Below, piece by piece: positions 58,373 to 59,973 of a DNA stretch of 64,000 nucleotides. A model generated the notes under the pieces. It made no database searches. It worked only from the letters and a program-made list of their open reading frames with translations, and was not told where the DNA came from. This stretch comes from Eledone cirrhosa (taxonomy: Eukaryota; Mollusca; Cephalopoda; Octopoda; Eledonidae), in contig OZ024742.1 in assembly GCA_964016885.1 (NCBI GenBank), forward strand, positions 358,141,087 to 358,205,086, read 5' to 3'. Numbering within the stretch: position 1 is the first letter of the stretch; each line of letters begins with the position of its first letter. The translations under genes were made by a program, and so were the position numbers.

Positions 58373-58636
58373 AAAGGGAAAAAATGAAACGAAATTTCAT
58401 TGCTCACACTTAGTACGGCTGTTACTTAAATATAAGCATGTATACGTACATACATATATATATATATATATACAGAAGTACAGTAGTATGTATATATATA
58501 TACATACATATATATATGTACGTATGGATTCACCGAAAATTTATTATAATGCTCGGTGTGTTTGCAAACAAACACCCCGAATTACCCGCAGTGTCTAGCA
58601 ACCATCGTTGTTCATTTGTTCAACACTGACAAAGGA

Positions 58637-58679
58637 ACACTGTACTAGTTTCAAGCTTATTAGCTATCGTCAACAACGC
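58637..58679 (-). ncRNA. hammerhead ribozyme, core-mutated (unit F1)
   Basis: Same fold as unit F2, but the box reads TTGACGA (58667-58673), i.e. the first invariant C is U. Stem I GCGTTG with CAGTGT still pairs partly. GAAA, CTAG and TA are kept. Probably inactive. Confidence 0.78.
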
Positions 58680-59055
58680 ATACCTTCCTGCCAGATGATT
58701 GAACGTCTGATTGTATATACTTTCCTTATGCATATTAACGGCTGAGCAGCCCAATTTGCATATCGAGTGTTAATCGGCCCGGGTACCGAATACGATAAAC
58801 GGAAAAAATGAAACGAAATTTCATTTCTCACTCTTAGTATGGCTGTTACTTAAATATAAGCATGTATACGTACATACATATATATATACAGACGTACAGT
58901 AGTATGTATATATATATACATACATATATATATGTACATATGGATTCACCGAACATTTATTAAAATGCTCGGTGTGTTTGCAAACAAACACCCCGAATTA
59001 AGCCGCACAGTGTCTAGCAACCATCGTTGCTCATTTGTTCAACACCGACAAAGGA

Positions 59056-59098
59056 ACGCTGTACTAGTTTCAAGCTTATTAGCTATCGTCAGCAACGT
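59056..59098 (-). ncRNA. hammerhead ribozyme, complete fold (unit F2)
   Basis: Minus strand: ACGTTG (59093-59098), CTGACGA (59086-59092), TAGCT AATA AGCTT (stem II), GAAA (59068-59071), CTAG, TA, CAGCGT (59056-59061). Stem I has 6 pairs including one G-U; stem II AGCU/AGCU has 4 pairs; stem III ACUAGU is palindromic, as in minimal hammerheads that act as dimers. Cleavage predicted between 59062 and 59061. Confidence 0.85.
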
Positions 59099-59176
59099 AT
59101 ACCTTCCTGCCAGATGATTGAACGTCTGAACGTATATACTTTCCTTATGCATTTTAACGGCTGAGCAGCCTAATTT

Positions 59177-59219
59177 ACATTGCTGACGATAGCTAATATG
59201 CTTGGAACTAGTACAGCGT
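59177..59219 (+). ncRNA. hammerhead ribozyme, decayed (unit R1)
   Basis: CTGACGA is intact (59183-59189) but GAAA is GGAA (59204-59207), stem II reads AGCT/TGCT and stem I ACATTG/CAGCGT is weakened. The unit begins almost exactly at this fold. Confidence 0.75.
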
Positions 59220-59611
59220 TCCTTTGTTAGAGTTGAACAAATGAGCAACGATGGTTGCTAGACACTGAACGGCTTAATTCGGGATGTTTGTTTACAAACA
59301 CACCGAGCATTATAATAAATGTTCAGTGAATCCATACGTACATATATATATATATATGTGCATGTATGTATATATATATATACATACTACTGTACGTCTG
59401 TATACATATATGTATGTACGTATACATACTTATATTTAAGTAACAGCCGTACTAAGAGTGGGAAATGAAATTTCGTTTCATTTTTTTCTTGTATCGTTTT
59501 CGGTACTCCGGCCGACTAACTCACTCGATATACAAATTGGGCTGCTCAGCCGTTACTATGCATAAGGAAAGTATATACTTGCAGACGTTCAATCATCTGG
59601 CAGGAAGGTAT

Positions 59612-59654
59612 ACGTTGCTGACGATAGCTAATAAGCTTGAAACTAGTACAGCGT
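59612..59654 (+). ncRNA. hammerhead ribozyme, complete fold (unit R2)
   Basis: ACGTTG (59612-59617), CTGACGA (59618-59624), TAGCT AATA AGCTT (59625-59638), GAAA (59639-59642), CTAG (59643-59646), TA (59647-59648), CAGCGT (59649-59654). Identical over the fold to the unit F2 ribozyme although inverted. Cleavage predicted after A59648. Confidence 0.85.
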
Positions 59655-59973
59655 TCCTTTGTCGGTGTTGAACAAATGAGCAACGATGGTTGCTAGACAC
59701 TGCGGCTTAATTCGGGATGTTTGTTTACAAACACACCGAGCATTATAATAAATGTTCGGTGAATCCATACGTACATATATATATGTATGCATGTATGTAT
59801 ATATATATATATATATATATATATATATATATATATATATATATATATATATATATATATATATATATATATATATATATATATATATATATATATATAT
59901 ATATATATATATATATATATATATATATACATACTACTGTACGTCTGTATATATATATACATATATATATATA

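What the first reader, a model, noticed from the sequence alone, without database searches (positions are those of the whole stretch)
58377..59972. Inverted array of ~424-bp units, each carrying a hammerhead ribozyme: a candidate cephalopod retrozyme
Seen: two direct units (F1, F2) followed by two inverted units (R1, R2), no protein, one hammerhead fold per unit. The folds in F2 and R2 are identical and complete although the units are inverted. Known: metazoan retrozymes are small tandem non-autonomous retroelements with type I hammerheads that yield circular RNAs and probably use Penelope-like enzymes. Inference: this is a retrozyme-type family. The head-to-head arrangement and ongoing TA expansion inside R2 are unusual.
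Basis: partly seen in the sequence, partly recalled or inferred. Interest (0 to 1): 0.9.

Follow-up and report, generated by a model that had tools for sequence, protein, structure and literature searches.

The report
Head-to-head hammerhead-ribozyme retroelement family
The array is one copy of a young, repeated family of small protein-free mobile elements whose RNA probably cuts itself with a hammerhead ribozyme; most sampled copies sit head-to-head in TA repeats, a trace that points to the kind of enzyme that moves them.

Summary
In detail: two direct and two inverted ~420-bp units (58371-59974) with identical complete hammerheads in F2 and R2; F1 and R1 have broken cores. It is a weak type I hammerhead: one-pair helix III closed by palindromic CUAG, and a U.U mismatch at the base of stem II. 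Both features are published for axolotl retrozymes that cleave better as dimers. The window's own 2.98-Gb genome holds many copies (1225 first-look candidates, 40 scored; 42 near-full-length matches at 95-100%, the window included). I fetched the 37 other listed loci. Of 39 arrays, 24 contain a head-to-head junction, one has only the opposite order, 14 have one strand: the layout is normal for this family. In 18 of 22 simple head-to-head arrays one arm reaches a set 3' end (hairpin, CCGTTTAT) and the other stops in the unit's TA tract, as in the window. Best reading: a non-autonomous metazoan-type retrozyme, inserted by reverse transcription primed from both sides of a break in TA-rich DNA. 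Published Penelope-like elements show similar layouts, so such an enzyme is the likely mobiliser. Cleavage, circular RNA and the partner were not shown; later genome searches did not complete.

The parts
58273..58373 (.). (TA)n tract at the outer 3' end of the minus arm: presumed insertion target
   Evidence: 22 of the 29 hairpin-type ends in the family enter a 20-nt stretch of at least 90% A+T against 5.3% of background 20-mers
58371..58789 (-). unit F1, minus arm; reaches the family's set 3' end (hairpin, then CCCTTTAT, then TATA)
58790..59180 (-). unit F2, 5'-truncated, minus arm
58637..58679 (-). F1 hammerhead, core broken (C3 to T); cut site would follow 58643
59056..59098 (-). F2 hammerhead, core intact, cut 59062/59061
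59176..59180 (.). head-to-head junction of two 5'-truncated arms; overlap 1 bp by BLAST, up to 5 bp (TACAT, with a mismatch) by eye
59176..59541 (+). unit R1, 5'-truncated at stem I, plus arm
59177..59219 (+). R1 hammerhead, core broken (A13 to G), one stem I pair and one stem II pair lost
59542..59974 (+). unit R2, plus arm, stops inside its own long TA tract
59612..59654 (+). R2 hammerhead, core intact, cut 59648/59649; helix III A-[CUAG]-U
59587..59673 (+). long stem I (18 more pairs beyond the six at the core, with a UAU bulge) around the R2 hammerhead

Best explanation
The array is one insertion of a young non-autonomous retroelement family of the metazoan retrozyme type. Tandem units are transcribed; a weak type I hammerhead, active mainly when two copies pair through the palindrome ACUAGU, cuts the RNA into ~420-nt units (inferred). 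An enzyme made elsewhere opens TA-rich DNA and both DNA ends prime copying. One copy starts at a set place about 270 nt downstream of the hammerhead cut, just after a hairpin. The other starts inside the RNA's own TA-rich stretch, where a TA end of the target can anneal. Both copies run for a variable length, sometimes over more than one unit, and are joined at their 5' ends. That gives head-to-head arms, as in the window: F1 at the set end, R2 in the TA tract. The enzyme is most likely from a Penelope-like element. Shown: copies, layout, the two kinds of outer end, TA flanks, ribozyme conservation. Inferred: cleavage, RNA form, priming on both sides, and the enzyme.
For: Copies: 1225 first-look candidates, 40 scored, 43 matches; 42 near full length at 95-100%, the window included. 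Layout: 39 arrays in 38 loci; 22 '-+', L011 '+-+', L018 '-+-', one '+-' (L036), 14 one strand; 22 against 1 by sign test p=5.7e-6. Outer 3' ends by last unit piece: 33 after A (TA tract), 25 in B (set end), 2 in C; 18 of 22 '-+' arrays have one of each (Fisher p=0.0019 on the 21 without C). A search for the hairpin found 29 ends; 23 continue as CC[GC]TTTAT, CCGTATAT or CTGTTTAT, and 22 enter A+T-rich 20-mers against 5.3% background. Ribozyme: 57 of 66 copies intact; core 8 of 726 changed against 129 of 5016 elsewhere, Fisher p=0.013; one stem I pair occurs as UG, AU, UA and GU. Named dimer fold -19.4 kcal/mol against -2.6 for two monomers with helix III. Literature: axolotl hammerheads with palindromic tetraloop or U.U mismatch, more active as dimers; a lizard Penelope-like protein cleaves and extends both strands at AT-rich DNA and starts at two adjacent internal sites that define an optional tail; Penelope copies are most often head-to-head, with the tail on one inverted pLTR, and favour AT-rich simple sequence.
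Against: No RNA data. No Rfam hammerhead reaches gathering. U.U mismatch and one-pair helix III make the monomer weak; without helix III each monomer scores -6.7, so the gain of the dimer may be about 6 kcal/mol, not 17, and the unconstrained best pairings differ from the hammerhead. Sampled loci are best matches to a query that contains the hammerhead, so intactness is biased upward; copies are not independent. In the 40-row alignment only one pair changes on both sides, which 169 of 500 shuffles reach. The 29 set ends were found by their hairpin, so they do not show that all arms end there: 35 of 60 outer ends do not. TA-tract ends could also arise later by TA recombination. Of 14 junctions examined 5 are ambiguous, overlaps are 1-2 bp, and inner ends partly recur (unit 231-232, 258-261, 301). 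L036 and edges of L011 and L018 show the opposite order. The lizard protein starts at the same sites on both strands, not at homologous DNA, and its insertion does not need hammerhead cleavage. Arms of one array diverge (mean 3.8%) hardly less than copies of different loci (4.3%), though they share more rare variants (0.44 against 0.08 per pair). No autonomous partner was found.
Confidence: 0.6

Rival explanations
1. The units are pseudo-LTRs of an autonomous Penelope-like element of this genome, or internal-deletion products of it, and not a separate retrozyme. The same two-sided integration would apply.
For: Penelope elements carry weak type I hammerheads, tandem and inverted pLTRs and AT-rich targets. 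Penelope-like coding pieces are near by: window 3622-5317 minus and L017, L018, L020.
Against: In the 39 arrays neighbouring units abut, with no coding stretch between them. tblastn with three window Penelope pieces against 20 loci of 9.5 kb plus a window slice hits 3 loci, never between units; the 17 shorter loci were not tested so. The unit (~420 bp) is about twice the 193-218-bp pLTRs quoted for A. vaga.
Confidence: 0.27
2. The same retrozyme family is moved by a LINE, whose twin priming (recalled) also joins an inverted 5' part to a normal 3' part.
For: One set end and one internal end per array fits twin priming; LINE reverse transcriptases are in the window.
Against: Head-to-head layout in 24 of 39 arrays and TA flanks match the published Penelope picture; no LINE tail was searched for.
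Confidence: 0.2
3. An ordinary tandem insertion was later inverted or folded back (TA palindromes are fragile), giving the head-to-head array.
For: TA tracts flank the array; a fold-back gives inverted repeats.
Against: A fold-back predicts F1 like R2 and F2 like R1. No variable site of 16 groups them so, while F2-R2 is the closest pair (5 differences in 200). Different junctions in many loci, 5' ends inward in 22 of 23 arrays with one strand change, need a repeated mechanism tied to insertion.
Confidence: 0.07
4. The hammerhead is a fossil or chance fold with no role, and the family moves as an ordinary SINE-like repeat.
For: Weak Rfam score; weak helices; 2 of 4 cores broken in the window; in the lizard element the hammerhead is not needed for insertion in vitro.
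Against: Core positions change less than the rest and 57 of 66 copies are intact; no chance hit in 300 simulated windows.
Confidence: 0.1

Closest known systems
Metazoan non-LTR retrozymes (Cervera and de la Pena 2020, PMC7229834; abstract, passages and sections 13, 14, 15, 17 read)
   Same: Small tandem units with type I hammerhead, no protein, below 50% G+C (36-37% here), strongly self-paired circle (z about -6); axolotl members share the palindromic tetraloop (one family) and the U.U mismatch (the other).
   Different: Unit 419-435 against circRNAs of about 170-400 nt (repeats of 150-450 bp also quoted). The parts read do not mention head-to-head arms, a set 3' end or TA targets.
Penelope-like elements with pLTRs (PMC3846280 passages and Discussion; PMC11167929 passages)
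   Same: Head-to-head arrangement, AT-rich targets, weak hammerheads, tandem repeats; a 3' extension present on one of the two inverted copies; start of reverse transcription inside the RNA, downstream of the hammerhead.
   Different: They encode RT and GIY-YIG endonuclease; the units here encode nothing found. Published tails are 30-40 bp; here the two end classes lie further apart, with a TA tract between. The lizard protein starts at the same sites on both strands.
Small hammerhead variants that cleave as dimers (Lunse et al. 2017; recalled; seen only as a reference in other papers)
   Same: Diminished helix III, dimer-type action expected.
   Different: Those are reported with Penelope-like elements; no such element is attached here.

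Membership tests
[quoted passage not shown]
   unit spacings 398-489 in 13 direct pairs; direct tandems in several loci
Metazoan non-LTR retrozyme | type I hammerhead in each unit | tested here: met
   57 of 66 copies with all core letters, biased sample; open end at stem I; Rfam sub-threshold only
Metazoan non-LTR retrozyme | no protein | tested here: met
   no protein found in the array
Metazoan non-LTR retrozyme | no LTR, PBS or PPT motifs | not tested
   PBS and PPT were not searched
Metazoan non-LTR retrozyme | low G+C and self-paired RNA | tested here: met
   G+C 0.36-0.37; circle folds -127.5 and -128.7 kcal/mol, z -5.9 and -6.0 against 60 shuffles each; the TA hairpin contributes
Metazoan non-LTR retrozyme | loop 1-loop 2 tertiary contact of canonical type I | tested here: inconclusive
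   a UAU bulge in stem I and an AAUA loop II exist; contact not modelled
Metazoan non-LTR retrozyme | circular and linear unit-length RNA in tissue | not testable with these tools
   no RNA data
Penelope-like element | RT and GIY-YIG ORF between pLTRs | tested here: not met
   units abut in 39 arrays; no Penelope match between units in 20 loci
Penelope-like element | inverted head-to-head terminal copies | tested here: met
   24 of 39 arrays
Penelope-like element | AT-rich simple-sequence target | tested here: met
   22 of 29 hairpin-type ends
Penelope-like element | optional 3' tail on one inverted copy | tested here: inconclusive
   18 of 22 '-+' arrays have the extra B piece on one arm only; length and TA tract differ from published tails
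Penelope-like element | short target-site duplication | tested here: inconclusive
   flanks are TA repeats, so a duplication cannot be read

The most novel reading that the evidence does not exclude
Animal retrozymes are mobilised by Penelope-like enzymes that copy retrozyme RNA from both sides of a DNA break. The genome keeps the record as head-to-head arms in TA tracts, one arm at a set 3' end and the other stopping in the RNA's own TA stretch. At least one other hammerhead-like family in the same genome (L037) shows the head-to-head layout and the same final letters CGTTTAT, so one machine would serve several ribozyme families.
Probability: 0.42. Interest if true: 0.78.

Novelty: new variant of a known kind. 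Interest (0 to 1): 0.62.

Why it matters
[quoted passage not shown] The 2020 study names Penelope-like elements as a strong candidate from shared features and co-existence (PMC7229834, section 17). A recurrent integration footprint is structural evidence on that open question and can be compared with Penelope and LINE insertions in any animal genome. The family also offers many young copies of a dimer-type ribozyme to test.

Tried and rejected
Rfam over the 1701-base stretch returned mostly AT-rich microRNA-like noise, over the window and a 221-base stretch nothing. The looser descriptor's hit at 56949 was dropped: its ~90% copy at 23537 lacks the core and Rfam shows no hammerhead there. The 224-bp tandem pair at 34515-34964 was checked with Rfam as a second retrozyme: no hammerhead. 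The exact ribozyme pattern is absent from viral contigs and genome contigs, which says little about an animal. Pfam did not recognise the window's Penelope-like ORFs at 0.001 (weak RVT_1 at 0.15); one search gave reverse-transcriptase relatives. Simple inverted duplication was rejected on site patterns. Unequal private changes of the four units (6, 1, 6, 0; p=0.013) suggest a mixed source RNA, but this is weak. Odds of the main and novel readings were left unchanged; a LINE rival was added.

Full report
What is in the window. Four copies of one non-coding unit lie at 58371-59974. Read in the sense of the ribozyme, F2 then F1 lie on the minus strand and R1 then R2 on the plus strand; the 5' ends meet at 59176-59180 and the 3' ends point outward. 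Cut-to-cut lengths are 419 and 435. The nearest pair is F2-R2 (5 differences in 200), F1 and R1 carry most private changes, and no site of 16 groups F1 with R2 against F2 with R1, so a simple palindromic duplication does not fit.

The ribozyme. R2 and F2 share an identical 87-nt region: six pairs of stem I, CTGACGA, stem II of four pairs with a U.U mismatch at its base, GAA, A-[CUAG]-U, then A and the cut. F1 and R1 have one core letter changed each. Beyond stem I the strand pairs for 18 more pairs with a UAU bulge. ACUAGU is self-complementary: two copies pair to a six-pair helix III. That named dimer fold scores -19.4 kcal/mol; two monomers with helix III score -2.6, one monomer without helix III -6.7. 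Tertiary contacts are not counted, and the unconstrained best fold of one core is another pairing (-8.1). The axolotl paper describes a one-pair helix III with a palindromic tetraloop in one family and a U.U mismatch at the base of helix II in another, both more active as dimers (section 15). Rfam support is below threshold: Hammerhead_HH9, 15.5 bits, E=0.067 on a 52-nt slice that I chose; none on larger stretches.

More than chance. A descriptor of this dimer type finds F2 and R2 and nothing in 300 simulated windows. It was written after seeing the motif. The better evidence is conservation across the genome.

Copies in the same genome. One search of the window's own assembly was answered: 2,984,417,623 bases, 1582 contigs, 1225 first-look candidates of which 40 were scored, 43 matches. 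Of these, 42 (the window itself included) cover at least 190 of 195 query bases at 95-100% identity; the other is a 33-base piece. They fall in the window and 37 other loci, which I fetched: 20 with 9.5 kb, 17 with 2.7 kb. They are the best matches to a query that contains the hammerhead, so they are young and biased toward intact copies; the L031 array reaches the end of its stretch.

Layout. Mapped with four unit pieces (matches under 19 letters dropped), the 38 loci hold 39 arrays: 22 minus-then-plus (the window among them; in L027 the plus part is a short piece), one plus-minus-plus (L011), one minus-plus-minus (L018), one plus-then-minus (L036), 14 on one strand. So 24 of 39 hold a head-to-head junction. 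Among arrays with exactly one strand change the ratio is 22 to 1 (p=5.7e-6). Neighbouring units abut.

Outer ends. Of 60 outer 3' ends, 33 stop after piece A, that is in the unit's TA tract, 25 in piece B, which ends at unit position 271, and 2 in C. In the 22 minus-plus arrays the two kinds go together: 18 have one of each, 2 have A-A (one is L031), 1 B-B, 1 A-C; Fisher p=0.0019 on the 21 without C. The window is one of the 18. One-strand arrays: 9 A, 4 B, 1 C. Looking for the B hairpin not followed by unit sequence gave 29 ends. This search finds only ends of that kind, but the letters after the hairpin were not chosen: 17 read CCGTTTAT, 1 CCCTTTAT, 4 CCGTATAT, 1 CTGTTTAT, 6 other. In 22 of 29 a following 20-nt stretch (letters 9-28) is at least 90% A+T, against 5.3% of 16046 background 20-mers from the 9.5-kb loci. 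The hairpin folds only modestly better than shuffles (z -0.8 to -2.2 in four copies).

Inner ends. Of 14 head-to-head junctions examined (of 24), 9 are clear and each joins a different pair of unit positions, with 1-2 bp overlap in 4 and gaps of 2-10 bp in 5; some single positions recur (231-232 three times, 258-261 three times, 301 twice). The other 5 fall inside TA palindromes. Arms of one array share rare variants more often than copies of different loci (0.44 in 25 pairs against 0.08 in 2621) although mean divergence is similar (3.8% and 4.3%).

Conservation of the ribozyme. In 66 copies of exactly 87 nt (three from the window) 57 keep every core letter; core positions show 8 changes in 726, other positions 129 in 5016 (Fisher p=0.013, copies not independent). 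One stem I pair occurs as UG 61, AU 2, UA 1, GU 1, unpaired 1. On a 40-row alignment from the window and the first 20 loci (31 distinct rows), 97.0% of cells pair and the covariation score is reached by 10 of 500 shuffles, but only one pair changes on both sides, which 169 of 500 shuffles reach.

Mechanism. One arm at a set end, the other ending in the RNA's TA stretch, 5' ends joined, TA flanks: this is what reverse transcription from both sides of a break in a TA tract would leave, with the second DNA end annealing to the TA stretch. For Penelope-like elements, PMC11167929 (passages) reports that a lizard protein cleaves and extends both strands, prefers AT-rich DNA, and starts inside the RNA at two adjacent sites that define an optional 30-40 bp tail, 111-118 bp into an ORF whose start lies 26 bp before the hammerhead cut. 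It also reports the same start sites on both strands, no homology of the start to the cut DNA, and insertion without a working hammerhead, which differ from or do not need my model. PMC3846280 (passages and Discussion) reports head-to-head as the most frequent inverted arrangement, the tail optionally on one of the inverted pLTRs, and AT-rich simple targets; its authors favoured self-priming on an antisense template, another route to the same layout. LINE twin priming (recalled) also gives one normal and one internal start and remains a rival.

Limits. No autonomous partner was identified. tblastn with three pieces of the window's Penelope-like element hits 3 of 20 loci, never between units. 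Every later genome search was unanswered. Host: not named; the highest-identity relative among the 120 listed for a window LINE is from Argonauta hians, 62%, and the SINE type is recalled as cephalopod.

Literature searches for novelty. hammerhead ribozyme + octopus: 1 paper, listing only, about LTR elements; + cephalopod: 0; retrozyme + Penelope + inverted: 5 papers listed, two of them checked by passages, in which no inverted retrozyme is mentioned; hammerhead ribozyme + head-to-head + retrotransposon: 0. The octopus repeat paper PMC13282606 has no mention of ribozyme or retrozyme in its main text. The library holds open-licence papers only, so this is not proof of novelty.

Noticed in passing
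L037:420-1035 (copies at about 599 minus and 856 plus): A second hammerhead-like family, head-to-head, whose two arms both end at ATTACGTTTAT; the plus arm then enters TATATA, the minus arm other sequence. By eye: CTGATGA, stem II, GAA, helix III of 3 pairs in the minus copy. Rfam gave no hammerhead match to the minus copy.
   Followed up: partly
L022:6596-6820 and L009 about 2488: Hammerhead-like motif with a long stem II; in L022 a partial inverted copy precedes it. No hammerhead match in Rfam for the L022 copy.
   Followed up: partly
L013 about 5437 plus and 1981 minus: CTGATGA/CTGACGA...GAAACCACTGGTA motif in two diverged copies.
   Followed up: no
L018:5401-5822: A solo minus 3'-end piece of the family, a TA tract, then a Penelope-type endonuclease piece on plus: a chance neighbour or a chimeric insertion. 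The sequence beyond reads N.
   Followed up: partly
window 3622-5317 minus: Remnant of a Penelope-like element (RT relatives; Penelope motifs and the GIY-YIG-like piece recognised from memory), with a TA repeat next to its 5' side.
   Followed up: partly
window 56906-57060 and 23537-23692: Two ~90% copies of a short AT-rich repeat with a hairpin showing one paired change by eye; one copy mimics a hammerhead core.
   Followed up: yes
window 34515-34964: 224-bp unit twice (98% match), next to a TA tract and upstream of a LINE-like ORF; no hammerhead found.
   Followed up: partly
window 59975-60340: tRNA-like SINE (recognised from memory; no tRNA gene called) starts directly where R2 ends.
   Followed up: no
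window 61505-62326: About 800 bp of (TG)-type tandem repeat.
   Followed up: no
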